Positions 21,212-63,308 of a DNA stretch of 64,000 nucleotides are shown here, in pieces. The DNA is taken from assembly GCF_016861605.1 (NCBI RefSeq), contig NZ_BOLM01000002.1:124001-188000 (forward strand). Reading direction: 5' to 3'. Every line of letters begins with the position of its first letter. Position 1 is the stretch's first letter. This DNA is from Levilactobacillus wangkuiensis (GTDB taxonomy: Bacteria > Bacillota > Bacilli > Lactobacillales > Lactobacillaceae). Made by a program: the position numbers and the translations under genes. Under the pieces are notes generated by a model. That model was not told where the DNA came from. It searched no databases and saw only the letters and a list, made by a program, of their open reading frames with translations.

Positions 21212-21462
21212 TGCCAATTGAAAATGGGGATTGGCTCAGTGTTCGTTCCCGGCGGCGGATTCAAGACGGTCTGCTGTGGGGAACGCCTGCGGCCTGAGAA
21301 GCGGTCCTCCGGCTCGCCTTGAAACCTCGCAAAAACCCGCGAGTTTCCAAGGTCGTCCCGTGCTCTAAACTGAGAAACCCCCTCAGTTAAGACCACCGAC
21401 ACAGCTGCCCGTCTTGATCCGCCTCTGGTCACTTAGACTGGCCACCCCATTTTCAATTGGCA
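21212..21462 (+). repeat. Structured intergenic repeat A1
   Basis: The core is 21245-21433 and runs from GTTCCCGGCGG to CTCTGGTCACT. Outer arms TGCCAATTGAAAATGGGG (21212-21229) and its exact complement (21445-21462) enclose it. Inside, TCAAGACGG pairs with CCGTCTTGA. It is one of about 18 copies in the window, and contains the kernel GGCCTGAGAAGCGGTCCTC. Confidence 0.85.
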
Positions 21463-21655
21463 TAGTCCTGGCCGCCCTGTCCCACTCCACCTGTAATGAC
21501 CACCATCCCCTGTATGCGTTTTAGACACGTGTCCTGCTCTTCCCCCTCAAACATACTAGCTGGTCGTTAAAGTAACTGATACAGCCTCAGATCCGGCCAG
21601 AAACCTACTGCACAGTTACCACTACTTAGTGAGCGGCAAAGTCATCCCCCACCAT

Positions 21656-21880
21656 ACAATCAGAAAGCCGGCCACTTTTGCTTAGCCTACTGGAACCGGA
21701 AGTCACCAAATGAGCTGCCCTGTGTCGGTGTTCTTAGACCGAGCGGGCTCCTCGGCCTTGGAACACGGGGCTGCGCTCATTTCCACACAGCAGAGCATAC
21801 AAGCGACTTCTATAATTCAGCCTGCCAGATAGCCAAGTCACCTCCACTTTACAATCAGAAAGCCGGCCACTTTTGCTTAG
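21656..21880. repeat. 30-bp direct repeats flanking a degenerate hairpin
   Basis: An identical 30-bp segment occurs at 21656-21685 and 21851-21880. Between them is a hairpin-rich stretch (AAATGAGC at about 21708 paired with GCTCATTT at about 21775) that vaguely resembles an eroded family A copy. The right 30-mer supplies the outer arm of repeat A2. No coding sequence is seen between 21463 and 21889. Confidence 0.6.
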
Positions 21881-22100
21881 GCGGCTGACGTGACCAGAGA
21901 CAGCTCAAGGTGCTCAGCTGTGTCGATGGCATTGGTCGGGGTTCTTTCCCGGCCTAGGGCATGGGACGACCTTGGAGACTGGTGCCTCTCCAGGCTTCAA
22001 GGCGAGCCGGAGGACCGCTTCTCAGGCCGCAGGCGTTCCCCACAGCAGAGCACCTTGAAGCTGGCGGCGGGAACAAAAGCCCGACTAAGCGAAAGTGGCT
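21851..22100 (-). repeat. Structured intergenic repeat A2
   Basis: The core is 21890-22074 on the minus strand, facing A1. The stem AAGGTGCTC/GAGCACCTT is perfect. The outer helix is GCCACTTTCGCTTAG (minus strand, 22086-22100) with its complement at about 21865-21880. The first of these arms is the 3' half and tail of the hairpin after the deoxynucleoside kinase gene. Confidence 0.85.
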
Positions 22101-22127
22101 CCGTGCCCGAGGGCGCGGAACCACTTT
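22092..22127. terminator. Terminator-like hairpin after the deoxynucleoside kinase
   Basis: AAAGTGGCTCCGTGCCC pairs with GGGCGCGGAACCACTTT. The plus-strand side ends ATTTTTAG and the minus-strand side is only weakly T-rich, so termination of the minus-strand gene is plausible but not ideal. Confidence 0.6.
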
Positions 22128-22147
22128 ATTTTTAGTGTAGAGCTGTT

Positions 22148-22780
22148 TTACAGTGAAGCAATTTTTTCGTCGATCAAGTGTAAGACTTGGTCCCGCGCTG
22201 CTGGGTCTTCCACGAAGTCCAGCTTGTCGCCGTCGATTTGCATCTTAGGTGACTTGTCGTAGGCATTGTACCAGTCGACGTAACGTTGATCGAGTTCTTG
22301 GTAGTATTTGTAGAGGCTAGGGTCATGGTCGATTTGTTCGTATGACCGGCCGCGCTTCTTGATCCGTTCCAGCATCGTTTCAAAGGAGATGTTGATGTGA
22401 ATCAGTAAGTCTGGGTTCTTCTTGTGCGTCGCGTCAGGTAATTCCTGCATCATGTTGGCCAACAGGGAATCGTAGATGTCGACTTCCGTGCTGGTGGCCC
22501 GGCCTAAGTCGGCGTTCAAATGGAAGAGTAAGGAATCCTCAAAGATTGAGCGATCCAAGACACTTTCATCATCGGCGTTGGCGGCCTTGATGTTGTCCAA
22601 ACGCTTGTTTAAGAAGTAAATTTGAAGCAAGAAAGCATACTTCTGGGGGTTCTGGTAGAACAGTGGCAAGATCTTGTTGTCATCCACTGATTCGTAAAAT
22701 GCTGGTTTGTTTAAGTGTTCGGCTAACAAAGTGGTTAAACTCGTTTTGCCGGCTCCGATAGTTCCCGATAATACAAGCAT
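22148..22780 (-). CDS. Deoxynucleoside kinase (dGK/dAK type)
   Basis: This 210-residue kinase phosphorylates deoxypurine nucleosides for salvage. The P-loop GTIGAGKTS lies at the extreme N-terminus. The ERS-type motif appears as DRSIFEDSLLF, and the lid is KKRGRSYEQ. Lactobacilli depend on such kinases for DNA precursors. Size and motifs fit the Lactobacillus dAK/dGK group; which base it prefers cannot be read. A promoter (TTGTCT-17-TACAAT) lies at 22846-22874. Confidence 0.92.
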   Translation of the reverse strand: MLVLSGTIGAGKTSLTTLLAEHLNKPAFYESVDDNKILPLFYQNPQKYAFLLQIYFLNKRLDNIKAANADDESVLDRSIFEDSLLFHLNADLGRATSTEVDIYDSLLANMMQELPDATHKKNPDLLIHINISFETMLERIKKRGRSYEQIDHDPSLYKYYQELDQRYVDWYNAYDKSPKMQIDGDKLDFVEDPAARDQVLHLIDEKIASL

Positions 22781-22845
22781 GCAATCTCTCCTTTAAATAA
22801 CGACGCGCCGGTTTTTTTCGTCCGGCCAAAATTTCAACACCACAT

Positions 22846-22874
22846 ATTGTACCAACCTCATGGGTAAAAGACAA
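22846..22874 (-). promoter_or_regulatory. Deoxynucleoside kinase promoter
   Basis: On the minus strand TTGTCT (22869-22874), a 17-bp spacer and TACAAT (22846-22851), about 65 bp before the start codon. Confidence 0.7.
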
Positions 22875-22908
22875 TATGTCGTGGCCATTTTCTCTCTAAC
22901 CAATCCGT

Positions 22909-22952
22909 TAAAAACGGCGCCTAGTCCGACTATTCGCCGACTAGACGCCGTT
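22909..22952 (-). terminator. Terminator after lysP
   Basis: The stem AACGGCGTCTAGTC with GACTAGGCGCCGTT is followed by a T run on the minus strand. Confidence 0.88.
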
Positions 22953-22995
22953 CAGATTTATTTAAAAATTTCGTGTGCCCACACTAATTTCTAGT

Positions 22996-24507
22996 TTAAT
23001 CGTTTGAAGTAGCATCCGCCTTAACTTCTTTTAACGTGCCTTCCTTATGAACAGGGGCAACGTCAACTTCGCTCAGCGGAATCAACTTAGTGTGCTTCTT
23101 GATCTTGTAGCCGATGTAAAGGACTAAGACCAATGGCACACTGATGTAAGTGACTAAGACTTGTTCCCAGTTCCCTGAGAAGAAGGATTGTGGGTCTTGC
23201 CCAACAATCACAGCCACACAGAGGATCAACGCCAGGATTGGTCCGATTGGGAACCACTTTGCGTGATAGCTCAGTTCGGACAGCTTGTGTCCTTGCTTGA
23301 TGAATGCCCGACGGAACCGGTAATGTGACAACGCAATCCCGAACCAAGCGATGAACCCGGTCAACCCACTAGCGGCAACCAGCCACATGTAGATTTGCGG
23401 ACCCGCAATACTACTGATAAAGGTCAAGGCAGCAACAATGGTCGTGGCAAACAGGGCAGGATAAGGAATCCCGTTCTTCCCAGTCTTTTCGAACAATTGT
23501 GGTGCGTAGCCTTCCTTAGACAGAGAGTACAGCATCCGCGTGGAAGCGTACATCCCAGAGTTTGCAGCGGAAATCACGGACGTTAAGATTACGGCATTCA
23601 TGACACTAGCGGCAGCGGCCAAGCCGGCACGCTGGAAGACCAACGTGAAGGGACTGATGGCGATGTCGGTTGCGGAAGAACCCAACAGATCCTTACTGGT
23701 GTAAGGCAAAACGGCGGCAATGACAAAAATAGCTAAAATGTAGAATAAGATAATCCGCCAGAATACGGAATTGATGGCCTTGGGAACACTGTGCGCTGGA
23801 TCTTCAGATTCACCAGCGGTAATCCCAACCAATTCAGTTCCTTGGAACGAGAACCCAGCAACCACGAAGACACTCAGGATTGCGGGGAAGCCACCAACGA
23901 ATGGGGCCTTCTTGTACGTGAAGTTTTCCAAGCCAGTGGCGTGACCACCCATGATACCCACGATGGTCATTAACCCAACGGCTAAGAAGACGAAGATGGT
24001 AACCACCTTGATCAAGGACATCCAGAATTCCGTTTCACCAAAGGCTTGGACGGCCAAGGCGTTGATCAGGAAGACGATGCCTAACGCAATGGCACTCCAG
24101 ATCCAGCTTGGGACCCCGGGTAACCAAAACTTCATAACCAGTGCGGCGGTTGAAATATCAACGGCAACCGTAATGGCCCAGTTGAACCAGTAGTTCCAGC
24201 CCATGGCAAACCCTAAGGCTGGATCAACGTACTTGGCTGAGTAAGCAGCGAACGAGCCAGAGATTGGCATGTTCGTGGCCATTTCACCCAAGCTGGTCAT
24301 CAGGAAGTACACCATCAGACCCATGGCAACGTAAGCAGCCAGCGCACCACCAGGCCCGGCTGTTGAAATAGCCGACCCACTGGCGACGAATAACCCGGTC
24401 CCGATACAGCCACCTAACGCGATCATTGAGACGTGACGTGTCTTGAGGCCCCGCTTGACCTGATCTGAGGCCCCGCTGGTTGTTGCGTTTGTCATACTTT
24501 GTTCCAT
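22996..24507 (-). CDS. lysP: Lysine-specific APC permease
   Basis: This amino-acid permease (503 residues) has 12 predicted membrane helices. It belongs to the APC/AAT family, with the helix 1 motif SMIALGGCIGTGLFVASG and the conserved FSFQGTELVGITAGESEDP. The substrate assignment to lysine comes from the lysine riboswitch directly upstream (24563-24803) rather than from the protein. It is monocistronic between its L-box and its terminator. Confidence 0.93.
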   Translation of the reverse strand: MEQSMTNATTSGASDQVKRGLKTRHVSMIALGGCIGTGLFVASGSAISTAGPGGALAAYVAMGLMVYFLMTSLGEMATNMPISGSFAAYSAKYVDPALGFAMGWNYWFNWAITVAVDISTAALVMKFWLPGVPSWIWSAIALGIVFLINALAVQAFGETEFWMSLIKVVTIFVFLAVGLMTIVGIMGGHATGLENFTYKKAPFVGGFPAILSVFVVAGFSFQGTELVGITAGESEDPAHSVPKAINSVFWRIILFYILAIFVIAAVLPYTSKDLLGSSATDIAISPFTLVFQRAGLAAAASVMNAVILTSVISAANSGMYASTRMLYSLSKEGYAPQLFEKTGKNGIPYPALFATTIVAALTFISSIAGPQIYMWLVAASGLTGFIAWFGIALSHYRFRRAFIKQGHKLSELSYHAKWFPIGPILALILCVAVIVGQDPQSFFSGNWEQVLVTYISVPLVLVLYIGYKIKKHTKLIPLSEVDVAPVHKEGTLKEVKADATSND

Positions 24508-24562
24508 AAATGTTTCCTCCTTCTTATTTTAGAAGGACTTCCTCGAAACGACCCAGTGAACT

Positions 24563-24823
24563 AAAAAATCTCCTTCGCAATAAAAGCCCGCGAAAGAGAT
24601 TGGAAAATTCATTATTCCAAGTCAATATCGTTGAAAGCGCCCCGCAACCCCTATTCGGCTGCGACAGTCCCTGATTTATTCAACCAGGACCCAACCTACA
24701 CGCTATGTCCTCACGCGCAGGTTTCGGCGACCGCCCCTTTTGCTTTCCGTCTGCGATGTTGACCCATCTCAGGAAAGCGACTCTTGTTGGTCGCACCTCT
24801 TCTATTCGATACTCTGTAGTATA
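24563..24823 (-). ncRNA. Lysine riboswitch (L-box) with terminator and promoter
   Basis: The minus-strand leader has the L-box core elements in order: AGAGGTGCG (about 24792-24800), GGGGCGGTCGCCGAA, GGTTGGGTCC and ACTGTCGC (about 24661). A terminator follows, AATCTCTTTCGC with GCGAAGGAGATT and six T residues (24563-24601). The promoter TTGCAA-17-TATACT ends at 24818-24823. High lysine would favour termination and switch off the permease. Confidence 0.93.
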
Positions 24824-24869
24824 CGCATCCCTACCAAATATTGCAACATGAAAATTCAATTAGAATGAA

Positions 24870-25418: not shown

Positions 25419-25633
25419 CTGATCCCCTCATTTCTCATCACCCCAGCACCAGCCAACTTGTCAGGTCACTACCTAACCCGTTGGCGAATGCGGTATACTT
25501 TAAGGTAACCGGGTTCAGCCAGTCCATCGGCGACCGAACCCCGTTTCGTTGACAGGCGCGCGCACAAGTTTGCGATTGGCCATGCCCACGAAACGTTTAA
25601 TCTTATCATGACTTATTTTGGGAGGTTTCGCAA

Positions 25634-26428
25634 TTGAAAACAATCACTTTGCCACTCGCACCCACGTCCAAGGCTTACTTACAGGGGTATTTGCGCGAGC
25701 CAGCCGAAGACATGGGCACCTATCCCGCCATCATCATCGTTCCCGGCGGCAACTACACCCACATCCCCGAACAACAGGCCGAGGACTTGGCATTAGCCTG
25801 GTCAGCGCGTGGCTACCAGGCCTTCTTCCTGCGCTACACGTTCGTCGGTGAAAAGACACCACTGCTGCCCACGCCTGTCGTGGAGCTGGCCAAGGGAATG
25901 GCCCTGCTGCGGCGGAACGCCAACAACTGGCAAATCGACACGGATCACATCTTCGTGGCCGGCTTCTCCGTCGGCGGTCACATCACCGCGCTGTTCAATG
26001 ACCTGTGGCACGATGAGGACTTTAACAAATTAGCCGGCACCACGCCCTATGAAATTAAACCGCGGGCCGTCATTCTCGGCTACCCGGTCATCACCCCGGC
26101 AGCGGGCTACCCCACGGACGCAGCCATGCTGGCGAAGTGGACGGATGATCCGGCCAGCATCGCAGCGGACAAGCTCGTCAACAGTCGTAACGTCGCGACC
26201 TTCATCTGGGTCACCGCGGAAGATCCCCTGGTACCCGTCCAAAACGCCTTCGCCTACGCCCAAGCTTCAATCGCGGCCAACGTGGACACGGAGCTCCACG
26301 TCTTCCATCAGGGCCCGCACGGCTTAGCATTAGCCAACCGTGTCACGGCCTGGAAGCCGGGGACGGCGTTGCCACACGTGGCACACTGGGTCGATCTAGC
26401 CGAAGAATGGCTCCACGAACTGGACTAG
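25634..26428 (+). CDS. Alpha/beta hydrolase, acetylesterase-like
   Basis: This 264-residue cytoplasmic esterase of the BD-FAE/Aes group has oxyanion region IIIVPGGNYTHIPEQQAE, nucleophile elbow GFSVGG (Ser about 116), acid in AEDPLVP and His in GPHGLALA. All three catalytic residues are in order. The start is TTG at 25634 with GGGAGG eight bases upstream. GC is locally high. It could deacetylate sugars or esters; the substrate is unknown. Repeat A3 follows its 3' end. Confidence 0.88.
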   Translation: MKTITLPLAPTSKAYLQGYLREPAEDMGTYPAIIIVPGGNYTHIPEQQAEDLALAWSARGYQAFFLRYTFVGEKTPLLPTPVVELAKGMALLRRNANNWQIDTDHIFVAGFSVGGHITALFNDLWHDEDFNKLAGTTPYEIKPRAVILGYPVITPAAGYPTDAAMLAKWTDDPASIAADKLVNSRNVATFIWVTAEDPLVPVQNAFAYAQASIAANVDTELHVFHQGPHGLALANRVTAWKPGTALPHVAHWVDLAEEWLHELD

Positions 26429-26450
26429 CACTTCCGCGTCTTGACTCGCC

Positions 26451-26690
26451 TTGCCGGGCGGTGAAAATGGTTTCGTGTCATCCGTTCCCGGCGGCGGATT
26501 CAAGGCGGTCTGCTGTGGGGCCGGTTCCAGCCAAAGAACGGGCTTCCACCTCAACTTTGAGCCTGGGGAGCGGTCTCAAAGGTTGTCCCGTGGGCTAAAC
26601 TGAGAAAATCGCTCAGTTAAGACCACCGACACAGCTGCCCGTCTTGATCCGCCTCTGGTCACTCACGTGGTGCGGAACTTTTCACCGTAC
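26451..26690 (+). repeat. Structured intergenic repeat A3
   Basis: Core 26484-26663. Internal helices include CAACTTTGAG with CTCAAAGGTTG and CTAAACTGAG with CTCAGTTAAG. The outer arms contain GGTGAAAA (left, about 26461) and TTTTCACC (right, about 26679). It lies between the hydrolase stop and the terminator at 26778, so it would be transcribed in that mRNA's 3' UTR. Confidence 0.85.
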
Positions 26691-26777
26691 GGATGGCGGC
26701 TGACACGGTGTTAGGCCAATTCGGTTTATTTAGCGTTTTATTGTGGGTACATTACTTTAACAGATTGACTTTTTCAG

Positions 26778-26808
26778 ACGCCTTCACGTATTTTTTTCGT
26801 GGAGGCGT
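26778..26808 (+). terminator. Terminator beyond repeat A3
   Basis: The stem ACGCCTTCACG with CGTGGAGGCGT is followed by TTTTCTTTT on the plus strand, 350 bp after the hydrolase stop. Between 26809 and 26935 I see no other feature. Confidence 0.75.
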
Positions 26809-26949
26809 TTTTCTTTTGCTCTTCTCCCTCGTCAACGACGGTCACCAACGATATTAGCAGGCCCACACTACTCATCACATAATGCAGCGCTAATTTAGTA
26901 ACAGTGAAAATTAATCTCAAGAGTATACCCTAACCACACCACCGTTTCT

Positions 26950-27225
26950 ATGGGCTAAACCAGTGTCAGCCGCAGGGATAGTGAAAATATCTTCGTTGCA
27001 GGAGTGACCAGAGGCGAGCCAAGGTGACCAGCTGTGTCGATGGACTTGGCTGGGGTTCTTTCCCAGCCTAGTTCCATGGGACAATCTTTGAGACCGCCTT
27101 TTGGCTCAAAGTTGAGGTGAAAGCCCGCTTCTCAGGCTGGAACCGGCCCCACAGCAGGGCACCTTGAGCTCGCCGCCGGGAACGGATACAACACGGTATA
27201 TTTTCACCATCCCAGAGGCGCAGTC
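26950..27225 (-). repeat. Structured intergenic repeat A4
   Basis: Core 27003-27183 on the minus strand, facing A3. GCTCGCC pairs with GGCGAGC and CACCTTG with CAAGGTG. The outer arms are GATAGTGAAAATAT (left) and ATATTTTCACCATC (right). It lies downstream of the PAP2 gene. Confidence 0.85.
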
Positions 27226-27247
27226 TAACAACTAATTTAGCCCATAG

Positions 27248-27287
27248 AAAAAACGTGTCAGCCACTGGAAAGAGTGGTTGGCACGTT
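27248..27287 (-). terminator. Terminator after the PAP2 gene
   Basis: AACGTGCCAACCACT pairs with AGTGGCTGACACGTT, followed by six T residues on the minus strand. Confidence 0.88.
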
Positions 27288-27291
27288 CTCG

Positions 27292-27960
27292 TTAAATTTC
27301 AGATTTTTTCAACAAAGGCCAGTGTTGCATCATCGGCGCTAAGCGAATGTACAGCCCCTCAGCCACCTGTAACCACAGGTAAGCCAACAGGACTGCCCCA
27401 ATCGTATCCGTTGGGAAGTGGGCGTTTAAGTACACCCGGGAGATCATGACCAATGCCATCCACACGATGAGGACGATTCGGAGCAGCCAGGCTTTCCAGG
27501 CCGCCATGATCATCGGCATCAGGATAACCCAGATCATCGCAATCAGCAGGAAGGTGCCGAACACGTGACCGCTAGGGAAACTGTAGCCATCATCGATAGC
27601 CAGATGGGCCGATGGGCGGGCGCGTTTGACCAGACTCTTGACCAAGCTGGCGATGACGTCACCCCCGGCTAGCGTCGCCAGACACCACAGTGCGGGAATT
27701 TTAAACTTGAAGCCCCACAGCAGGAAGGCCAGGATCAGCACCCAAATAATATCCAACTTAGGCTCCGCTAGGCTCGTGACTCCCCGATACAGCAACGTTT
27801 TCCACCCCGGTTGATTCTTCTGAATCACATCGACGATCGATGAATCCAGGAAATCCACGTAGGCGTTTTGCGCCTTTATGTAAACGGCCACGACCAAGAA
27901 CAGTATGGTGGCAAGCGTAAACTTCCACGGCCGATCGCGGTCCTTATTAAATAGCATCAT
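27292..27960 (-). CDS. PAP2 family membrane phosphatase
   Basis: This 222-residue membrane protein has about six membrane spans and the full acid phosphatase signature: KSLVKRARPS (C1), FPSGHVFG (C2, catalytic His) and SRVYLNAHFPTD (C3). Relatives dephosphorylate undecaprenyl pyrophosphate or phosphatidylglycerol phosphate at the outer membrane face. Which lipid it uses is not visible. It is a single gene with its own terminator. Confidence 0.9.
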   Translation of the reverse strand: MMLFNKDRDRPWKFTLATILFLVVAVYIKAQNAYVDFLDSSIVDVIQKNQPGWKTLLYRGVTSLAEPKLDIIWVLILAFLLWGFKFKIPALWCLATLAGGDVIASLVKSLVKRARPSAHLAIDDGYSFPSGHVFGTFLLIAMIWVILMPMIMAAWKAWLLRIVLIVWMALVMISRVYLNAHFPTDTIGAVLLAYLWLQVAEGLYIRLAPMMQHWPLLKKSEI

Positions 27961-31162: not shown

Positions 31163-31345
31163 CGCCTCCGGGGTCCGGAAAAATGGGCCGTGACGCTGTG
31201 GGCGGACGGTTGAAGCCTAAGGGGCGGTCTTCAGCCTTACTTTGAGCCGCCTGAAACGCGTCTCAAAGATACCAGTTGTCTAACCGGCCTAGCCGGTAAG
31301 ACAACTCCCACGGCTTAACCCATTTTTCCGGATCCCTGCGGCTGA
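31163..31345 (+). repeat. Structured intergenic repeat B1
   Basis: A variant of the same element. It has the A-type kernel (GAAGCCTAAGGGGCGGTCTTC) and the helix ACTTTGAG/CTCAAAG, but different ends. The outer arms TCCGGAAAAATGGG and CCCATTTTTCCGGA enclose it. It pairs with inverted copy B2, which lies on the far side of the GNAT gene. Confidence 0.8.
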
Positions 31346-32497: not shown

Positions 32498-32664
32498 GGG
32501 GAAAAAGGTCTCAGCCGTGGGAGTTGTCTTACCGGCTCTGCCGGTTAGACAACTGGTATCTTTGAGACGCGCACCTGGCGGCTCAAAGTAAGGCTGGAGA
32601 CCGCCCCTCAGGCTTCAGCCGTCCGCCCACAGCGTCCCGGACCTTTTTCCCCGCCCGGTAAGGC
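32481..32664 (-). repeat. Structured intergenic repeat B2
   Basis: An inverted copy facing B1. The outer arms are GGGCGGGGAAAAAGGT and ACCTTTTTCCCCGCCC. Internally there is a hairpin with GTTGTCTTACCGG and CCGGTTAGACAAC, and the conserved kernel. It follows the MerR gene's terminator. Confidence 0.8.
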
Positions 32665-36002: not shown

Positions 36003-36187
36003 CGCCTTACCGGGCGGGCAAAATAAACCGTGACGCTGTGGGCGGACGCCTGAAGCCAAAGGTCAGTCTTCAGACTTGCTTTGAACCTCTGCGAACCGAG
36101 TTTCAAAGACACCAATTATCTAAGTGGCAAGGCCCACCACTAAGATAATTCCCACGGCTGAGTTTATTTTGCCCGCCCTCACGGCTC
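36003..36187 (+). repeat. Structured intergenic repeat B3
   Basis: A third B copy. The outer arms are GGGCGGGCAAAATAAAC and GTTTATTTTGCCCGCCC, with GTGACGCTGTGGGCGG at the core start and an inner hairpin (AATTATCTAAGTGG with CCACTAAGATAATT). It lies 46 bp beyond the terminator of the DUF4811 gene. The stretch 36188-36400 shows no gene. Confidence 0.8.
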
Positions 36188-36432: not shown

Positions 36433-36624
36433 GTGAGCGACCAGAGGTGGTTTTGCGGACTACGCTGTGTCGATGGCCTTATCCGGGGTTTCTCACCCGG
36501 GTTAGGCCATGGGGCGACCTGGGAGACTCGTGCTTTTCGAGGCTTCCAGGCGAGACGGAGGACCGCTTCTCAGGCCGCAGTCGTCCCCCACAGCGTGGGG
36601 AGCAAAGAACCACCGCCGGGAGCG
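36433..36624 (-). repeat. Structured intergenic repeat A5a (tandem copy)
   Basis: A family A copy, nearly identical to A5b and offset by 240 bp. GGTGGTT pairs with AACCACC at the base. Together with A5b it forms the only tandem array of the family in the window. Confidence 0.85.
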
Positions 36625-36651: not shown

Positions 36652-36901
36652 GAGCTGCTTTCCTTTGCCAGTGTGAGCGACCAGAGGTGGTTTTGCGGAC
36701 TACGCTGTGTCGATGGCCTTATCCGGGGTTTCTCACCCGGGTTAGGCCATGGGGCGACCTGGGAGACTCGCGGGTTATAGCGAGGTTTCCAGGCGAGACG
36801 GAGGACCGCTTCTCAGGCCGCAGTCGTCCCCCACAGCGTGGGGAGCAAAGGACCACCGCCGGGAGCGCAGTTCAAACACAAGGCAAAAAGAAAAGCAGCT
36901 C
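36652..36901 (-). repeat. Structured intergenic repeat A5b with terminator-derived outer arm
   Basis: Core 36673-36867. The outer helix joins 36882-36901 (the 3' arm and T tract of the MerR-like gene's terminator) to 36652-36669, an 18-nt near-complement. It is nearly identical to A5a, differing mainly by a 3-nt insertion in one loop. Confidence 0.85.
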
Positions 36902-38436: not shown

Positions 38437-38612
38437 GTTCCCGGCGGTGGGTTCAAGGTTGCCTGCTGTAGGGAACGGCTCCAGCCTAAGAAGCGGTCTT
38501 CCGCCTCGCCTTGAAGCCTGAAACCCACAGTCTTCAAGGTCGTCCCATGGTCTAACCTGAGAGAACCACTCAGGTAAGACCATGGGACGACCTTGACCCA
38601 CCTCTGGTCACT
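38437..38612 (+). repeat. Structured intergenic repeat A6
   Basis: The internal helices CGCCTTGAAG/CTTCAAGGTCG and GGTCTAACCTGAG/CTCAGGTAAGACC are strong, and the base pairs GGTGGGT with ACCCACC. It sits between the azlD stop and the terminator at 38667, inside the expected 3' UTR. Confidence 0.85.
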
Positions 38613-38847: not shown

Positions 38848-39038
38848 TGAGCGACCAGAGGCGGGTCAAGGTGACCAGCTGTGTCGATGGCATTGGCTAG
38901 GGTCCTTTCCTAGCCTAGGGCATGGGCCGCCCTTGGAAACTCGTGATTCTCAACGAGGTTTCAAGGCGAACCGGAAGACCGCCCTTTGGCTGGAGGTGGG
39001 CCCCACAGCAGGGCACCTTGAACCCGCCGTCGGGAGCG
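38848..39038 (-). repeat. Structured intergenic repeat A7
   Basis: A copy facing A6, placed directly after uraA. GGCGGGT pairs with ACCCGCC and CAAGGTG with CACCTTG. Confidence 0.85.
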
Positions 39039-43242: not shown

Positions 43243-43428
43243 GTTCCCGGCGGCGGATTCAAGGTTCCCTGCTGTGGGGAACGGTGCCAGCCTGAGGAAC
43301 GGTCTGCCACCTCGCCTGGAAGCCTAGAAAATCACTAGTCTCCCAGGTCGTCCCGTGCTCTAGACTGAGAAAATCACTCAGTCAAGACCACCGACACAGC
43401 TGGTCAGTTTGGCCCACCTCTGGTCACT
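43243..43428 (+). repeat. Structured intergenic repeat A8
   Basis: A family A copy upstream of the MarR gene. GCCTGGAAG pairs with CTCCCAGGTC, and the inner hairpin is CTGAGAAAATCACTCAG. It faces A10. Confidence 0.85.
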
Positions 43429-43650: not shown

Positions 43651-43695
43651 AGTGACCAGAGGTGAGCCAAGGCGCCCAGCTGTGTCGGCGGGAAC
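43651..43695 (-). repeat. Truncated family A copy (A9), ends only
   Basis: Only the two termini remain: AGTGACCAGAGGTG...CAGCTGTGTCGG joined directly to CGGGAAC. About 140 bp of the interior is missing. The stretch 43429-43650 has nothing else I recognise. Confidence 0.75.
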
Positions 43696-43796: not shown

Positions 43797-43976
43797 AGTG
43801 ACCAGAGGTGGCTCAAAATGCCCGGCTGTGTCGGTGGCCTTGGCTGAGGTCCTTTCTCAGCCTAGCCCACGGGACAACCTTTGAGACCGCCCTTTGGCTC
43901 AAAGTTGAGGTGGAAGCCCGCCCCTCAGGCTGGAACCGGCCCCACAGCAGGGCGTTTTGAAGCCACCGTCGGGAAC
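43797..43976 (-). repeat. Structured intergenic repeat A10
   Basis: The base helix is CAAAATGCCC with GGGCGTTTTG, while other copies carry CAAGGTG/CACCTTG or CAAAGTG/CACTTTG here, a clear compensatory change. It follows the terminator of the GNAT gene to its right. Confidence 0.85.
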
Positions 43977-44829: not shown

Positions 44830-44986
44830 CATAATCCCAGCTCTAGTCAATTGCCCCTGAATGAATTCAGAGGCTTGTCGCTCACGTGTCTGGCGACACA
44901 GTAGTCCAACATGTCCGTTAAGACACTCCTACTCGTAGTGGCAACATCATCGGGTAATTGACGGCTACCCGTTTAACTATCAGGAT
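44830..44986 (-). ncRNA. Candidate omega-RNA at the 3' end of tnpB
   Basis: Downstream of the tnpB stop the minus strand folds into several hairpins (GGGTA/TACCC, TGTCGC/GCGACA, GTGTC/GACAC, then the right-end hairpin). In TnpB systems this region is the guide-RNA scaffold, and the guide is the sequence just outside the right end. This is inferred from family knowledge. Confidence 0.45.
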
Positions 44987-46207
44987 CTACCCAACAGTCG
45001 TTAGTTTCTTAATCTTGGGATGCTTGACACCGTTCAACCAATCTTGGCCGAGCATCTCAATATTCATGGCTCCTAATCGGTCATCATTACAACGATACTG
45101 ACATTGAGAGCACCAATACTCATGAGTTTCGTGATGACGATTAGTCTTCTCAACTAGGCCACACTTGTGACATCTCTGCGAAGTGAATGCTGGATTCACC
45201 TTCACAACGGTGCTTTGAATAGCCTGAGCCTTGTACGTCAAGAACGATTCTAGCTGGAAGAAAGACCAGGAACGGTGACTATTACGCAGTGACTTAGGTA
45301 AGTCATCGGTGTTGAATGTTACGTTGGTTAAGTCTTCCAGGACAAAAAGTGTATGCGAGCCATATCGTGCAACGAGTGTCTTAGCTAGCCGATGATTCAC
45401 ATCGGTCATCCAGCGGTTCTCTCGTTGCGCTAGCCGTTTCAACTTTTTCTTGGCAGATTTAGTCCCTTTACTTTGTAGTTGCCGACGAATCTCCAGGAAC
45501 TTCTTTCGCTTAAGTAAGATTTTTTGACCATCAAAGAATAGTGCCTTGCCTTCACTATCAAAGGTAGTCGCTAAAAAGCGTAAACCACGATCAATTCCCA
45601 CAACTTTAGGATTATCTTTGGCATCGAAATCGTTGACTTCCTTTGTGATGCCGATGTGCAAAAACCACTTGCCCCGGGAGTGGACTAGCTTAGCGGTACC
45701 CAGTTTCCAGTCGTCGGTGAAGTACTTCTCGAATCCTTTATCAGTGAACCCCAACTTAGTTCGTTTGCCTAGAGTGGTTATCGAGATTTCCCGCATGCTA
45801 TCTACGAAAGAATAGTTACTCTGACGTACCAAGTCTGCTTGTGGCCGACGAAACTGGATGGGGGTCACCAACCAGTTCAGGTCTCTAGGGACTTGAACCC
45901 ACTTCTTTTCCTCGTTCTGGTAACGGTAAGGATGTTGCTTCATTTGTTCCTGAACAGTTTTGTAGCGAGCTACTACTGTCCGAAAAACCGATTGGACCAT
46001 CTGACTATTGAGCGATGATTCTTGTCTGAATATTTTGTACAGATAGTGATTGATTTTTAACCAACTTAACTGAAACTCGTGGTCAAAAATCCATTGACTA
46101 ACAATATTAGCTACACGTTGATATTCCTGGCTCATTGCCAAAAATTGTTCTGCTTGATTCGTGTCTGGATAGAGTCTCAGCTTGATTGTTCGTCCTAGTT
46201 TAACCAA
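44987..46207 (-). CDS. tnpB: TnpB, RNA-guided nuclease of IS605 family
   Basis: This 406-residue TnpB has the RuvC-like catalytic set apparently intact: Asp206 in VVGIDRGLRF, Glu291 in LFVLEDLTNV and Asp376 in NDDRLGAMNI. The zinc finger is formed by Cys346/349 and Cys366/369. TnpB cuts DNA guided by an omega-RNA and aids retention of the element. The start is TTG at 46207 with GGGGAGG upstream. No tnpA transposase is present within the window, so movement would need one in trans. Confidence 0.93.
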   Translation of the reverse strand: MVKLGRTIKLRLYPDTNQAEQFLAMSQEYQRVANIVSQWIFDHEFQLSWLKINHYLYKIFRQESSLNSQMVQSVFRTVVARYKTVQEQMKQHPYRYQNEEKKWVQVPRDLNWLVTPIQFRRPQADLVRQSNYSFVDSMREISITTLGKRTKLGFTDKGFEKYFTDDWKLGTAKLVHSRGKWFLHIGITKEVNDFDAKDNPKVVGIDRGLRFLATTFDSEGKALFFDGQKILLKRKKFLEIRRQLQSKGTKSAKKKLKRLAQRENRWMTDVNHRLAKTLVARYGSHTLFVLEDLTNVTFNTDDLPKSLRNSHRSWSFFQLESFLTYKAQAIQSTVVKVNPAFTSQRCHKCGLVEKTNRHHETHEYWCSQCQYRCNDDRLGAMNIEMLGQDWLNGVKHPKIKKLTTVG

Positions 46208-53044: not shown

Positions 53045-53293
53045 CCTCCGGGCTGGTGAAAACTGGGCCTCGTCGCGTTCGTTCCCGGCGGTGAGCTCAA
53101 GCCGCCCTGCTGTGGGGCCGGTTCCAGCCAAGAAGCGGGCTTCCACCTCAACTTTGAGCCAAGGATCGGTCTCAAAGGTTGTCCCGTGGACTAGGCTGAA
53201 AAAGAACTTCAGCCTAGTCCACCGACACAGCTGGTCGGCTTGGCTCACCTCTGGTCACTACCACAACTGGCCCATTTTCACCAGCCCTGCGGC
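53045..53293 (+). repeat. Structured intergenic repeat A11
   Basis: Core 53081-53259. The base helix is GGTGAGC/GCTCACC and CAAGCCG/CGGCTTG, and the inner hairpin is GGACTAGGCTGAA/TTCAGCCTAGTCC. The outer arms GGGCTGGTGAAAA and TTTTCACCAGCCC are shared with A13. It lies upstream of the acetyltransferase and faces A12. The stretch 53294-53470 is AT-rich with no gene. Confidence 0.88.
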
Positions 53294-53472: not shown

Positions 53473-53715
53473 CGGCCACTTCTCTTAACATTTGTGAGCG
53501 ACCAGAGGCAGCCCAAGGTGCTCAGCTGTGTCGATGGCCTTGGTCGGGGTTCTTTCCCGACCTAGGGCATGGGACGACCTTGGAAACTCGCGCTTCTCAG
53601 CGAGGTTTCAAGGCGAGACGGAGGACCGCCTCTCAGGCCGCAGTCGTTCCCCACAGCAGCGGGAGCAAGGATTGCCGCCGGGAGCGCAAGAACAAACCGA
53701 TAAGAAAAGTGGCCG
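53473..53715 (-). repeat. Structured intergenic repeat A12 with terminator-derived outer arm
   Basis: Core 53494-53686. The outer helix joins 53701-53715 (the 3' arm and T tract of the araA terminator) with 53473-53487 (14 of 15 bases complementary). It lies directly after the araA terminator. Confidence 0.85.
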
Positions 53716-55228: not shown

Positions 55229-55522
55229 GGCCGCCTCCGGGACGGTGAAAACTCACGATACCCCAGAAAAAGCTGAGCATGCGACCGACTATGACAATGC
55301 CTGTTCAAGGAACGACAGTCGCTCAGCGTAGTCATATCGTTGCCGCCGAAGCCAAGTAGGTACAGAATCCCGTGGTAGTGATGTTAGGCCGGCGTTTTCC
55401 CGGGCTTACATCACTGGATGGGGTCAAGACTCACGCCTTTGTGAGGCTTGGACCCAAGGCCGAAGACCGCTCTTTGGCTTCGGCCGTGCCTCATGGGATG
55501 GCGTACCTACTTGGCGAGGCAT
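55229..55522 (-). repeat. Structured intergenic repeat C, inside the ara operon
   Basis: The base helix GCCAAGTAGGTAC (55351-55363) matches GTACCTACTTGGC (55503-55515) exactly. An inner hairpin contains GTGATGTAAGCCCGGG / CCGGCCTAACATCAC, and the kernel GAAGCCAAAGAGCGGTCTTC is shared with A and B. A family-like outer arm (GCCTCCGGGACGGTGAAAA, 55233-55251) lies on one side only. It fills the gap between araD and araA. Confidence 0.75.
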
Positions 55523-56267: not shown

Positions 56268-56292
56268 ATTCTTTCTCCTTAACTATCAGTGA

Positions 56293-58300: not shown

Positions 58301-58332
58301 CGCTCATACTCATTATTGATTAAACCAGCCGG

Positions 58333-59418: not shown

Positions 59419-59441
59419 GTTAGCACCTCATCAATGCACTT

Positions 59442-59470
59442 ATTCTACCGGTTTTCGGCGGCCGTTTCAA
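59442..59470 (-). promoter_or_regulatory. araR promoter
   Basis: Minus strand: TTGAAA (59465-59470), 17 bp, TAGAAT (59442-59447), just after the stop of the ArsR-type regulator gene. Confidence 0.75.
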
Positions 59471-59504
59471 ATAAATATCATAATAATCGGAATTCATTAG
59501 ACAA

Positions 59505-60395
59505 TTAACTATAGAAGGCAGACAACGCAATATTCTGATCATGGTTACCAAATCCTTGGCCAAAAATAGTACAGCCACCGGACTTTTTAGCATCTTTTTT
59601 AACCTCGAAACGAATGGTCCAGGTCTCCTGATCCGTTGGTAAATCATCCAAACAAACATCGGTGAAGGGTTGCCCATCCAGATAGGTCCCGTGGTCCGTG
59701 ACCCGCAAGATTTTGAGAATCCCATACTGGTTGACATTGTCCGGCACCCAGTCGGGCGTATACTTCCCCCGGATGTCGGAAAAGTCGCCGGGACTCCGCC
59801 ACGTGCCAATTTCCTTACCATTAATGGAAAACGTAATGTCGGACGGCCAGGTATTGTTGGAAAACGGAAATTCCGAGCCCAACTCGACAGACAGGTCGAG
59901 CATTTCCAGGTGCTCCCCGCGCTGTAAGAAGTTAGGCGTGCGGTACTCCACGTAACCATCGTTGAACCAGATCATGCCAGCATTCATGCGCTCGGGAAAC
60001 ATGAAGAACTTGGGATTGTCCACTTTGCCAATGTACCCATCGGGACCGGCCAGCCCACACGACGGCTGCACAGAGTACTCCGTGTAGTGGCCAACCGGGA
60101 TGGTTGTTTGATGAACCTTGAAGTCCGGATAAATGGCCTGAGGGAACTTGACCTCAATCGTGTCGACATGTAAGGAAGAAATCTTCTGGTGACCGACCCG
60201 CTTGCTGGTAATCAGCCCGGCCGTCTCCAGCTTGCGCAGGTGTTTGGTGACGATGGCACTGCTTAAATCCAAATGACCAGCTAAATCCTGCACACTCATC
60301 GGTTGACCGGACAACAATTGAATGATTTTCAATCGGACGGGGCTTGCCAAGGCCTCGTAGACCGGTAAAGATGTTTCCGTTAAGTCTAATTGCAT
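59505..60395 (-). CDS. ArsR-type helix-turn-helix regulator with a large C-terminal domain
   Basis: This 296-residue protein joins an ArsR-like DNA-binding domain (residues about 10-75: LASPVRLKIIQLLSGQPMSVQDLAGHLDLSSAIVTKHL) to a beta-rich domain of about 200 residues. The second domain has aromatic-rich strands such as GMIWFNDGYVEYRTP and KILRVTDHGTYLDGQPF. Classic ArsR metal sensors lack such a domain. It diverges from the GH43 gene and lies beside araR, so it probably senses an arabino-oligosaccharide. The function is inferred. Confidence 0.8.
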   Translation of the reverse strand: MQLDLTETSLPVYEALASPVRLKIIQLLSGQPMSVQDLAGHLDLSSAIVTKHLRKLETAGLITSKRVGHQKISSLHVDTIEVKFPQAIYPDFKVHQTTIPVGHYTEYSVQPSCGLAGPDGYIGKVDNPKFFMFPERMNAGMIWFNDGYVEYRTPNFLQRGEHLEMLDLSVELGSEFPFSNNTWPSDITFSINGKEIGTWRSPGDFSDIRGKYTPDWVPDNVNQYGILKILRVTDHGTYLDGQPFTDVCLDDLPTDQETWTIRFEVKKDAKKSGGCTIFGQGFGNHDQNIALSAFYS

Positions 60396-60553
60396 CGTAA
60401 TGCGCTCCTCTTCACAAAGTTTTTTACTCTTTAATATTTACCATTAGGTTAAGTAAATCAAAACTAATCGGCAATGTATCCGCTAACATTTAACATTATA
60501 GTTAACCCAGCCGCGAAAAACAAACTTTTTTGTAGAAAGATTAACAAAAGTGG

Positions 60554-60607
60554 TTGACAGCGTTTTCATCCGGTTGTATATTTCATATGTACTTATTTAT
60601 TAGGATT
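60554..60607 (+). promoter_or_regulatory. GH43 promoter with overlapping cre and weak AraR-like site
   Basis: TTGACA (60554-60559), 17 bp, TATATT (60577-60582). A CcpA-type site TTGACAGCGTTTTCA (60554-60568) overlaps the -35, so glucose repression is expected. TGTACTTATTTATTAG just after the -10 shares TACTTAT with the ara palindrome. The divergent region to the left (60396-60550) has the inverted repeat ATTTAC/GTAAAT near 60437-60459. Confidence 0.75.
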
Positions 60608-60670
60608 TATTTGGAAATAGCAATTTTAAGTCCTTACAAATTATTCAGCCAAAGGAGAGATTGATTTAAT

Positions 60671-61651
60671 ATGGTACAAGCACAGGATTACATCAACCCA
60701 CTCATTGTTCAACGGGCAGATCCTTACATCTACAAGCACACTGATGGTTACTACTACTTCACTGCTTCCGTTCCTGCCTACAACTTAATTGAAATTCGCC
60801 GGGCAAAAACCTTAAACGGGTTGGCCAACGCTGCACCCCGGACTATCTGGCGTAAACACCCAGATGGTAGCGGTGCCATGAGCCAATTGATTTGGGCACC
60901 CGAATTACACTACATTAATGGTAAATGGTTCATCTACTTCGCCGCTTCCCACACCAAGGAATTCGACCACAACGGGATGTTCCAACACCGGATGTACTGT
61001 ATTGAATGTGACAATCCAGATCCCATGCGTGACGAATCCGACTGGATCGAACATGGCCGGGTCGAAACGCCAATGGACACCTTCGCTTTGGATGCCACGG
61101 TCTTTGAAGCCCAAGACAAGCTATACTACGTTTGGGCGCAAAAGGATCCCGCAATCAAAGGGAACTCCAACATCTACATCGCTGAGATGGAAAATCCTTG
61201 GACGTTGAAGAGCAAGCCAGTTATGCTGACGAAGCCTGAATACGACTGGGAAACGAAGATTTTCTGGGTCAACGAAGGTCCTGCCGTGTTACACCGGAAC
61301 GGTCGGTTCTTCCTCACCTACTCCGCCAGCGCAACCGACGAAAACTATGCCATGGGCATGCTGAGTGTTCCTGAAGATGCTGATTTGCTGGACGCCGCCA
61401 ACTGGACCAAGTCCAAGACGCCCGTTTTCCAAAGCAACATGCCAATTCACCAATTTGGCCCAGGTCACAACTCCTTCACGGTTGCCGAAGATGATAAAAC
61501 CGATATCTTGGTTTACCACTGCCGGAATTACACCGACATCAAGGGCGACCCACTGTACGATCCAAACCGTCACACGATGGTTCAGCCGTTCACTTGGAAT
61601 GATGATGGCACACCAAACTTTGGCAAGCCAGTTCCATACAATTACAAATAG
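60671..61651 (+). CDS. GH43 alpha-L-arabinofuranosidase
   Basis: This intracellular five-bladed propeller enzyme (326 residues, no signal peptide) has catalytic residues in order: Asp17 (RADPYIYK, base), Asp141 (FALDATVFE, pKa modulator) and Glu202 (WVNEGPAV, acid). It would release L-arabinose from imported short arabino-oligosaccharides. It resembles the L. brevis GH43 arabinofuranosidase. AGGAGAG precedes the ATG. It is cotranscribed with the symporter gene that begins 14 bp downstream. Confidence 0.93.
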   Translation: MVQAQDYINPLIVQRADPYIYKHTDGYYYFTASVPAYNLIEIRRAKTLNGLANAAPRTIWRKHPDGSGAMSQLIWAPELHYINGKWFIYFAASHTKEFDHNGMFQHRMYCIECDNPDPMRDESDWIEHGRVETPMDTFALDATVFEAQDKLYYVWAQKDPAIKGNSNIYIAEMENPWTLKSKPVMLTKPEYDWETKIFWVNEGPAVLHRNGRFFLTYSASATDENYAMGMLSVPEDADLLDAANWTKSKTPVFQSNMPIHQFGPGHNSFTVAEDDKTDILVYHCRNYTDIKGDPLYDPNRHTMVQPFTWNDDGTPNFGKPVPYNYK

Positions 61652-61665
61652 GGGCGAAATAAAAA

Positions 61666-62943
61666 ATGGATAATGCAAAAACTGAATCAAAACATTTCTG
61701 GGGGTTCCCATTCTCTCACTTTAGTTACTTCTTTATCTGGGCTGTCGTCAACGGGTATTTAACCCTTTGGTTGGAACAAGTTGCCCATTTAAACGGGACT
61801 GAATCCGGGATGATCTTCTCCATGATGGCCGGGATTTCTTTAATCTTCCAACCAGTCTTCGGGGTTGTTTCCGATAAGTTACTCTTCAAGAAGACCTTGA
61901 TCTTAACGATTTCTATCGTCGGGATCTTCATCGGGCCTTACTTCCAATGGGCCTTCATGCCATTGCTGCACATTAACACGGTATTAGTTGCCATTGTGAC
62001 TGGGACTTTCCTCAGTTTCATCTTAAACGGTGGTGTCTCCGTTATTGAACAATACGTTCAACGTGCTAGTTTAGCCAACGGTTTCGAATACGCCCACTCT
62101 CGGGTTGGGGGTTCCGTTGCCGGGGTTGTTGCTTCATTAGTTGCCGGCCGGGTATTCCTCTGGAAGCCAAACTCAATCTTCTGGGCATGTACCATTGCTG
62201 CTATTATTTTAACTGGTTTACTGATTTTCTCTGACAAAGTTGATATGGACAATGCCTCCGCTGCCGGTGATACTTCCGACTCCCTGGACATGAAGACGGT
62301 TCTTTCCGTGTTCAAGATCAAGAACCTTTGGGTTTTGGCGATCTTCTACATGGGTGCCTCTGCCCTGTTCGATGTCTTTGACCAACAATTTATCATCTTC
62401 TTCAAGACTTTCTTTGACACGGCTGCTCAAGGGACCTTGGTTTACTCTTACATGAGTTCCGCCCAAACGGCCATTGAATTCTGCTTAATGTTCCCAATGC
62501 CTTGGATCATCAACAAGATTGGTTCTCGGAACGGGTTGATCATCTACGGGTTCCTGACTTGTATCCGGATCTTAGGGTCTGCTTTATCCCCTAACTGGAT
62601 TTGGATCGTCGGCTTCCGTCTGTTGGCTGGTCTGGAAATGCCACTGCTGTTAACTTCTATTATGAAGTACATCGCTGGTGCCTTCGATATTCGTTTGTAC
62701 GCCACGGTTTACGCCCTCGCGTCGAACTTCGCTAAACAAATTTCCGTCTTCATCTTCTCAACGGTTGCTGGGAGCATGTACGACAAGATTGGTTACCAAC
62801 ACACTTACGTTATCATGGGTGTCGTTGTCTTCTTCATTACCTTGTTCGCTGCCTTCATGTTAAAGAAGGAAGACCCTGTCCAAGCTGGTGAAGTTGAAGC
62901 ACCTGACGACGCTAAAACTGAAACGGCGACTAGTCAGGAATGA
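61666..62943 (+). CDS. Oligosaccharide:H+ symporter (LacY-like MFS)
   Basis: This 425-residue transporter has 12 helices and starts with FPFSHFSYFFIWAVVNGYLTLWLEQ, and has SRVGGSVAGVVASLVAGRVF, features of the OHS/LacY subfamily. Paired with intracellular GH43 and GH51 enzymes it probably imports arabino-oligosaccharides. The acidic tail (GEVEAPDDAKTETATSQE) is cytoplasmic. Codon use is like that of highly expressed genes. Confidence 0.88.
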   Translation: MDNAKTESKHFWGFPFSHFSYFFIWAVVNGYLTLWLEQVAHLNGTESGMIFSMMAGISLIFQPVFGVVSDKLLFKKTLILTISIVGIFIGPYFQWAFMPLLHINTVLVAIVTGTFLSFILNGGVSVIEQYVQRASLANGFEYAHSRVGGSVAGVVASLVAGRVFLWKPNSIFWACTIAAIILTGLLIFSDKVDMDNASAAGDTSDSLDMKTVLSVFKIKNLWVLAIFYMGASALFDVFDQQFIIFFKTFFDTAAQGTLVYSYMSSAQTAIEFCLMFPMPWIINKIGSRNGLIIYGFLTCIRILGSALSPNWIWIVGFRLLAGLEMPLLLTSIMKYIAGAFDIRLYATVYALASNFAKQISVFIFSTVAGSMYDKIGYQHTYVIMGVVVFFITLFAAFMLKKEDPVQAGEVEAPDDAKTETATSQE

Positions 62944-62975
62944 CCGTCAACGCTTAAATAATTAGATTTGAAATG

Positions 62976-63006
62976 GAGGGGAGGCCAATCGCGGCCACCC
63001 CTCTTT
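62976..63006 (+). terminator. Terminator after the symporter gene
   Basis: GAGGGGAGGCC pairs with GGCCACCCCTC, followed by TTTTCTTT on the plus strand. Confidence 0.82.
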
Positions 63007-63042
63007 TCTTTGGGGTTACGGGTTACGCGGATGTTATTGTCG

Positions 63043-63308
63043 CCTCCGGGCTGGTGAAACTGAGCCTCGTCGCGGTGTCCGTCCGTTCCCGGCGGCGAGC
63101 TCAAAGTGCCCTGCTGTGGGGCCGGTTTCCGCCTGAGGACCGGGCTCCCACCTCAACTTTGCGCCTGAGAACCGGTCGCAAAGTTTGTCACGTGGACTAG
63201 GCTGGATAAGAACTCCAGCCAAGGCCACCGACACAGCTGGTCACTTTGGCCCGCCTCTGGTCACTAACATCCACCGACGTGGCCCATTTTCACCAGCCCT
63301 GCGGCTGA
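63043..63308 (+). repeat. Structured intergenic repeat A13
   Basis: Core 63085-63265. CAAAGTG pairs with CACTTTG and the outer arms are GGGCTGGTGAAA and TTTTCACCAGCCC, nearly identical to A11's. It follows the symporter terminator. In 63309-63470 I see an imperfect hairpin (CTACAGG/CCTGTAG) but no clear promoter for the GH51 gene. Confidence 0.87.

What the first reader, a model, noticed from the sequence alone, without database searches (positions are those of the whole stretch)
21212..63308. A family of about 18 highly structured intergenic repeats with compensatory base changes
Fourteen A copies (one truncated), three B copies and one C copy, about 180-190 bp each, occur only in 21-63.3 kb. 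The same helices are kept with different sequence. Base helix: CAAGCCG/CGGCTTG (A11), CAAAGTG/CACTTTG (A13), CAAAATG/CGTTTTG (A10), CAAGGTG/CACCTTG (A4, A7), CAAGACGG/CCGTCTTG (A1). Second helix: CAACTTTGAG/CTCAAAGGTTG (A3) versus CGCCTTGAAG/CTTCAAGGTCG (A6). Such covariation suggests selection on a folded RNA or on hairpin DNA. I do not recognise the family. It may be a structured RNA class or a non-autonomous hairpin transposon.
Basis: partly seen in the sequence, partly recalled or inferred. Interest (0 to 1): 0.87.

Follow-up and report, generated by a model that had tools for sequence, protein, structure and literature searches.

The report
Gene-facing mobile DNA hairpins in Levilactobacillus
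A lactic acid bacterium carries hundreds of copies of a large folded DNA repeat that sits beside genes almost always facing the same way and seems to rebuild one half of itself by copying the other, which can look like evidence for a folded RNA although the pattern fits DNA better.

Summary
In detail: 18 copies at the stated places, with helices kept through two-sided changes far beyond shuffled and slid controls. They are not confined to this region: 196 lie in 835,545 fetched bases of the genome (about 735 by extrapolation), and 17 of 101 sampled Lactobacillaceae genomes match. Rfam has no match at gathering score.

An RNA reading fits poorly. G·U is no commoner than A·C between copies (31:49 and 24:48), also when split by transcribed strand. 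Sites are polymorphic between species, and whole hairpins are replaced at orthologous places.

Two further findings. Copies within 100 nt of a gene end turn their 5' side to the gene 91:1, at gene starts and gene ends alike, and neighbours are never divergent. In 6 of 73 loci (mismatched loci 0.17%; at most 2 of 523 control ends) the 3' flank holds an inverted copy of the neighbouring ORF's end; four of those six ORFs have Pfam domains.

Best reading: non-autonomous mobile DNA hairpins whose 3' side is laid down by snap-back copying of the 5' side. The enzyme is unknown; RAYT and reverse transcriptase do not track the elements.

The parts
21245..21433 (+). A element, 188-nt conserved unit; locus-specific outer stem CAATTGAAAATGGGG / CCCCATTTTCAATTG lies outside it
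21717..21792 (-). weak small remnant of the family
   Evidence: E 0.0014
21889..22074 (-). A element; outer stem pairs GCCACTTTCGCTTAG with CTAAGCAAAAGTGGC
26484..26663 (+). A element (CAACTTTGAG subtype)
27003..27183 (-). A element (CAACTTTGAG subtype); convergent partner of 26484
   Evidence: no R1 match at the orthologous site in 7 of 11 relatives
31179..31330 (+). B element
   Evidence: no R1 match in the orthologous 214-bp gap of G101
32499..32658 (-). B element
36010..36173 (+). B element
36436..36623 (-). A element, tandem duplicate of the next (period 240)
36676..36866 (-). A element, tandem duplicate
38437..38612 (+). A element whose 3' part (normally ..CGACACAGC..) is replaced: an exact 19-nt inverted copy of its own inner sequence TCAAGGTCGTCCCATGGTC lengthens the third hairpin well beyond its usual stem
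38850..39037 (-). A element, convergent partner of 38437
43243..43428 (+). A element
43651..43687 (-). truncated A element (3' part only)
43797..43976 (-). A element
53081..53259 (+). A element; outer stem GGTTTAAAC / GTTTAAACC
53497..53685 (-). A element
55365..55505 (-). C-type element
63085..63265 (+). A element

Best explanation
A large family of non-autonomous mobile DNA hairpins. Each copy has a conserved tip: a short stem closed by GCTGTG/CACAGC around three hairpins. The tip sits on a stem whose outer part differs from locus to locus. SHOWN: high copy number, insertion polymorphism, replacement of whole hairpins at orthologous loci, fixed polarity with the 5' side toward the nearest gene, and, at some loci, inverted copies of the gene-side sequence (in a few cases the end of the ORF) on the far, 3' side. 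INFERRED: when an element is born or renewed, a strand reaching from the gene side through the tip folds back and is extended by copying its own 5' arm and 5' flank, and then rejoins downstream. The 3' arm is thereby overwritten with the complement of the 5' arm. This would give paired changes without G·U steps, locus-specific stems and the polarity, because only non-coding DNA can be overwritten on the 3' side. How tips reach new loci and which enzyme acts are unknown.
For: Copy number: 196 in 835,545 bases. Between-species polymorphism of the gap 26429-27291: 863 (here), 777, 666, 611 and 407 bp with elements; 316, 125, 125, 125, 87, 78 and 76 bp without an R1 match. G·U not above A·C between copies: 31 vs 49, 24 vs 48, and 31/28 (sense) against 28/37 (antisense) by context. 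Copy-specific outer stems: matched flank score 10.6 vs 6.6 for mismatched loci (A copies). Polarity within 100 nt of genes 57:1 and 34:0; neighbours <700 bp +- 43, -- 13, ++ 9, -+ 0. Same in L. mulengensis + L. lanxiensis (77:1; -+ 0 of 64) and G015 (22:0; -+ 0 of 9). Inverted copies of the last 70 nt of the ORF beyond the element: 6 of 73 vs 0.17% mismatched, 1 of 73 direct, 1-2 of 522-523 gene ends without element per window tested; four of the six ORFs have Pfam domains. Five of the six lie at mirrored distance. Fossil in copy 38437. Hairpin replacement with orthologous flanks kept.
Against: No enzyme found. Polarity could instead come from target choice. Most loci (67 of 73) show no ORF-end copy at this threshold, one of the six is not at the mirrored distance (offset -131), and the ORF with the longest copy (C2:208763) has no Pfam match. 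The 0 of 33 for genes ahead is a weak control. A motif scan for overwritten halves inside elements gave one case I trust, and one match in the opposite direction that I did not examine (L201:1195). In two G015/G107 orthologues one-sided changes (30) far outnumber two-sided ones (2), so pairing is not kept up in place there. The three inner hairpins also covary, and a single fold-back does not explain that. In place, one-sided mismatches are G·U 95, A·C 78, other 67, a slight lean to G·U on RNA-energy folds. Levilactobacillus sets share ancestry (92-93% identity), so they are not independent.
Confidence: 0.5

Rival explanations
1. Ordinary MITE-type elements: terminal inverted repeats (GGGTTAAACCAGTG..) moved in trans by a conventional transposase, with stems kept by selection on transposition and polarity set by target choice.
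For: B copies often have outer ends GGGTTAAAC/GTTTAACCC by eye; a B copy in L. lanxiensis L113, inside a longer stretch missing from L. mulengensis L155, has such ends. Copy number and intergenic placement are typical of MITEs.
Against: A elements share only about 188 nt; outer sequence is near random between most copies even where cores are 93% or more identical (means 0.51 and 0.55). No target duplication was evident at the four polymorphic sites, whose flanks are rearranged. Inverted copies of ORF ends are not expected from cut-and-paste.
Confidence: 0.25
2. A structured RNA class working in untranslated regions, with covariation from selection on the RNA fold.
For: Strong covariation; a branched conserved fold; of 92 copies behind a gene 3' end 26 have the terminator beyond them, so some are transcribed.
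Against: G·U not favoured in either transcriptional context; copies lie sense at 3' ends and antisense at 5' ends; 21 of the same 92 lie beyond the terminator; presence varies between species; long copy-specific outer stems.
Confidence: 0.12
3. In-place DNA function (insulator, nucleoid or replication site) at gene borders, kept by selection on each copy.
For: Strict gene-facing layout. Orthologues in own/mul/lan: paired sites diverge 0.069 against 0.129 unpaired, two-sided changes 93 against 15.4 expected.
Against: Two-sided changes are clustered: 29 of 53 orthologous pairs have none and 8 pairs hold 65 of 93, some by hairpin replacement. Copies are absent at the same place in relatives; two G015/G107 copies decay.
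Confidence: 0.1
4. REPIN-like elements moved by a RAYT/IS200-type Y1 transposase.
For: Hairpin DNA, high copy, intergenic, inverted pairs, compensatory changes, as described for REPINs (PMC3116915, passages).
Against: No Y1_Tnp (PF01797) match in this genome although 28 of 101 family genomes have one; members of a convergent pair are no more alike than random copies.
Confidence: 0.05

Closest known systems
REPINs / BIMEs with RAYT transposases
   Same: Intergenic hairpin DNA in hundreds of copies, inverted pairs, compensatory changes (PMC3116915, passages read)
   Different: About 190-310 nt instead of roughly 100 (recalled); branched three-hairpin tip; no Y1 transposase match in this genome; gene-facing polarity; inverted copies of host ORF ends
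MITEs
   Same: Short, non-autonomous, intergenic, recurrent inverted outer ends in the B type
   Different: Stem sequence differs per locus but stays complementary; no target duplication seen; no partner transposase identified
ERIC and other large palindromic repeats (recalled, not tested)
   Same: Long imperfect palindrome in intergenic DNA
   Different: No sequence link tested; polarity rule and flank copying not known to me for these
Quasipalindrome template switching (recalled); yeast hairpin-capped inverted amplification (PMC10766183, title and start of abstract seen in the listing)
   Same: A strand folds back and copies itself, giving inverted copies of flanking DNA
   Different: Here tied to a conserved mobile tip and, as far as seen, to one direction
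msDNA-like repeats of Nannocystis (recalled)
   Same: Dispersed hairpin DNA repeats in a bacterium
   Different: No reverse transcriptase match in G015 or G053, which are rich in elements

Membership tests
Any Rfam 15 family | covariance-model score at or above the gathering cut-off | tested here: not met
   no gathering match over a copy in the window or in 15 relative loci (120,597 bases); at E<=10 on 911 bases: three matches far below gathering, one of them (SorX, 19.3 of 46.6 bits) over a copy
REPIN/RAYT | Y1 transposase (PF01797) in the genome | tested here: not met
   0 matches in G000
REPIN/RAYT | two inverted repeats forming one DNA hairpin with compensatory changes | tested here: met
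   (ssDNA fold of two A copies, z -6.8 and -4.1)
MITE | terminal inverted repeats shared between copies | tested here: inconclusive
   seen by eye in B copies; outer 40 nt of A copies on average 0.51-0.55 identical even in close pairs
MITE | target site duplication | tested here: inconclusive
   none evident at 4 polymorphic sites, but flanks there are rearranged
MITE | related autonomous transposon in the genome | not tested
   no partner known to search for
Structured RNA class | G·U pairs clearly commoner than A·C mismatches in helices | tested here: not met
   between copies; in place (95 G·U, 78 A·C); tRNA comparison
Structured RNA class | transcription of the folded strand | not testable with these tools
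   no RNA-seq
Retron/RT-derived repeats | reverse transcriptase present where elements are rich | tested here: not met
   G000 has 2, G015 and G053 have none

The most novel reading that the evidence does not exclude
A self-spreading DNA hairpin that uses no dedicated enzyme of its own: its folded tip makes the replication machinery turn back in one fixed direction, copying the gene-side flank (even coding sequence) onto the other side. Each copy thus builds its own stem at birth and heritably places inverted copies of host sequence next to genes.
Probability: 0.2. Interest if true: 0.92.

Novelty: new variant of a known kind. Interest (0 to 1): 0.74.

Why it matters
It is a clear case where textbook covariation may not mean RNA, with a simple test (G·U against A·C) that helps to tell the two apart. 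If the snap-back reading is right, it is a one-way, structure-driven way to spread DNA and rewrite gene borders, and it may make up several percent of this genome (rough estimate: about 735 copies of 190-310 bp, extrapolated). The orientation rule that ignores gene strand has no ready explanation in known repeat families that I could name.

Tried and rejected
Rejected: gene-cassette model (elements bracketing gene blocks): transitions across blocks are as expected by chance, -+ 56 against 53.8. Convergent pair as one transposing unit: members no more alike than random copies (56.5 vs 59.8), tandem ones are local duplications (84.9). RAYT and reverse transcriptase as required partners. Elements always inside transcription units: not so, of 92 copies behind gene 3' ends the terminator lies beyond 26 and before 21, none found for 45 (home-made terminator finder). 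Plasmid, phage or viral home: no match for one A query in plasmids or phages, one B query in plasmids, one exact pattern in viral contigs. Distribution beyond the family: 3 of 198 genomes of the order sample, all three Lactobacillaceae, and 1 of 249 of the phylum sample, the own genome; these searches scored only 17 and 13 candidates per genome, so weak presence elsewhere is not excluded. Motif scan for overwritten halves inside elements: 7 matches for 3' overwritten by 5' and 1 for the reverse among 407 nhmmer hits; the four CCGCCGGGAAC matches are probably chance (seen to be so for C1:226475 from the sequence), L140 showed nothing when printed, L222 and L201 were not examined, only copy 38437 is kept. 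Literature: six searches listed no paper that I recognised as describing this family; PMC2267715 and PMC12306157 were looked at by passages only.
Full report
OBSERVATION. An alignment of 38 cores (35 A and 3 of a related type) with a hand-written structure of 42 pairs gave 26 pairs with changes on both sides and 178 doubly changed cells, against 48.2 in shuffles and 2-21 with slid partners.

ANATOMY. The tip is closed by GCTGTG/CACAGC. In A copies GGG/CCC encloses two hairpins (one with the loop core GCC-UGAGAAGC-GG, one with CTTTGAGCC or CTTGAAACC), and a third hairpin follows. Around this lies a stem of about 27 nt per side with the conserved asymmetric edges GTTCCCGG and CTCTGGTCAC. Together these make the 188-nt unit shared by A copies. 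Outside it, the sequence is near random between most copies even where cores are 93% or more identical (left and right means 0.51 and 0.55 over 23 pairs; single pairs reach 0.90). Within a copy the two sides are still complementary: mean flank score 10.6 for matched loci against 6.6 for mismatched ones, 22 of 128 A copies above the 99th percentile of mismatched loci; B copies 9.7 against 6.2, 17 of 65. B copies have a shorter tip and, by eye, recurrent outer ends GGGTTAAACCAGTG. Single-strand DNA folding of two A copies gave z-scores of -6.8 and -4.1.

EXTENT. Model R1 matched all 150 candidates that were scored in the own genome, of 1576 first-look candidates (cap), and gave 196 matches at E<=0.01 in 835,545 bases, so about 735 per 3.14 Mb by simple extrapolation from the largest contigs. 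Both are 92-93% identical to the own genome in fetched stretches. In the family sample 17 of 101 genomes and 8 of 40 genera matched. In the order sample 3 of 198 and in the phylum sample 1 of 249 matched at E<=1e-5, all Lactobacillaceae; 17 and 13 candidates per genome were scored there. Rfam gathering searches gave no match to the elements.

NOT LIKE RNA. In pairs that are at least 85% Watson-Crick, 128 A copies show 4454 Watson-Crick, 31 G·U, 49 A·C and 33 other cells; over all pairs 4747, 69, 85 and 142. 150 copies from the two named species show 5226, 24, 48 and 40. Split by the gene behind the copy, G·U/A·C is 31/28 where RNA would be sense and 28/37 where it would be antisense, with two systematic pairs left out; with them 48/40 and 46/58. 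23 distinct tRNAs gave 474, 30 and 0; ARAGORN prefers paired stems, so this only illustrates. In place, between orthologous copies, one-sided changes left G·U 95, A·C 78 and other 67 on RNA-energy folds. The pooled A·C excess between copies (97:55, p 0.0008) treats cells as independent, which they are not; it may hint that the other strand folds.

MOBILITY. In 11 same-genus genomes the gene order around 25.6-44.7 kb is largely kept. The gap between the orthologues of 25634-26428 and 27292-27960 is 863 bp here, and 777, 666, 611 and 407 bp with elements, by eye of other types, in four relatives. It is 316 bp in G108 (by eye with a remnant) and 76-125 bp in six others, with no R1 match. Nearest-neighbour core identity in the sampled quarter of the genome has median 0.913, and 25 of 130 are at least 0.95. 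Close pairs can share the tip while having different but self-complementary stems (one clear case). Among 53 orthologous element pairs between own, mul and lan, paired sites differ at 0.069, unpaired at 0.129 and flanks at 0.110; 240 pairs changed on one side; two-sided Watson-Crick changes number 93 against 15.4 expected. They are clustered: 29 pairs have none and 8 pairs hold 65. The alignments of the top three pairs (two of them the same locus) show the flanks kept and the hairpin replaced by another family member. Some loci enter more than once through three-way comparisons. Against steady upkeep: two G015/G107 orthologues have 30 one-sided and 2 two-sided Watson-Crick changes (a third row there was not orthologous and is left out).

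LAYOUT RULE. Neighbouring copies within 700 bp are +- 43, -- 13, ++ 9, -+ 0. Of 129 intergenic regions holding copies, 49 hold more than one and none of these has a - copy to the left of a + copy. Using crude ORF calls of at least 100 aa, copies within 100 nt of the nearer gene end turn their 5' side to it 57:1 at gene 3' ends and 34:0 at gene 5' ends; at 100-200 nt 16:4 and 37:1; beyond 200 nt 10:6 and 19:9. Named species: 77:1, 42:5 and 27:16 in the three distance bands, neighbours -+ 0 of 64. G015: 22:0, 5:1 and 3:1, -+ 0 of 9. Other members: 8:1, 8:0 and 5:2, -+ 0 of 6. The sets share ancestry in part.

INVERTED COPIES OF ORF ENDS. For 73 copies behind a gene 3' end the last 70 nt of the ORF were compared with the reverse complement of the far flank. 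Score 12 or more: 6 of 73, against 0.17% of mismatched locus pairs and 1 of 73 in direct orientation. Gene ends without elements: 1-2 of 522-523 depending on the window. Others: 4 of 62 in the named species (mismatched 0.19%), 2 of 17 in G015, 0 of 17 in the rest. With both gene ends, 9 of 147 (mismatched 0.35%); 8 of the 9 lie at mirrored distances (offset 3-14), one does not. Three of the nine are gene starts, where my ORF call is uncertain; in two (C1:99133, C3:137656) it runs into the element and they should be discounted. Of the six at gene 3' ends five are mirrored. The mirror test on the gene ahead gave 0 of 33, a weak control. Pfam: of the six ORFs four have domains (BPD_transp_1, ABM, Glucosaminidase, E1-E2 ATPase) and two none, among these the one with the longest copy (C2:208763, 192 aa); a seventh scanned gene, with a lower score, has Amidohydro_2. 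Copy 38437 in the window shows the same thing on a small scale: its 3' part is replaced so that an exact 19-nt inverted repeat lengthens the third hairpin beyond its usual stem.

MECHANISM. The simplest account of these facts is one-way fold-back copying from the 5' (gene) side to the 3' side, at the birth or renewal of a copy, followed by decay. It makes stems complementary without G·U steps, makes them locus-specific, and explains the polarity because the 3' side must be dispensable. It does not by itself explain covariation of the three inner hairpins (selection on folding during movement, or exchange of tips, is needed) nor how tips reach new loci. No partner enzyme was found: PF01797 is not matched in this genome and PF00078 not in element-rich G015 and G053.

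NOVELTY. The kind, non-autonomous hairpin DNA, is known (REPIN paper PMC3116915 read by passages). The family, its size, polarity and flank copying were in no paper that I recognised in six literature searches.

CHECK. On rereading the calls I mended the Pfam count for the six ORFs, added the in-place G·U/A·C numbers and the all-pairs counts, and spelled out what the motif scan did not examine.

Noticed in passing
window 44846-45600: A ~755-bp stretch in many copies (76-92% identical among those listed) in this and other genomes of the genus, overlapping a 406-aa ORF (44987-46207, -): probably an insertion sequence
   Followed up: no
window 24627-24809 (-): Lysine riboswitch (RF00168, 115 bits) upstream of a 503-aa ORF
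   Followed up: no
window 18389-19196 (-): Cluster of eight tRNA genes; no element was found in the first 21 kb
   Followed up: no
window 20959-21150: By eye, a T-box-like leader on the minus strand upstream of the 423-aa ORF; not reported by Rfam at gathering score
   Followed up: no
window 21646-21692 and 21841-21887: A 47-nt direct repeat (87%) next to the element at 21889, including part of its outer stem
   Followed up: partly
   Followed up: partly
G000:C22:3911-4459 and C11:69116-69691: Two reverse-transcriptase-like ORFs (349 and 343 aa) in this genome
   Followed up: no
alignments A4 and A5: A·C mismatches exceed G·U between copies (97:55), hinting that the complementary strand is the one that folds
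   Followed up: partly
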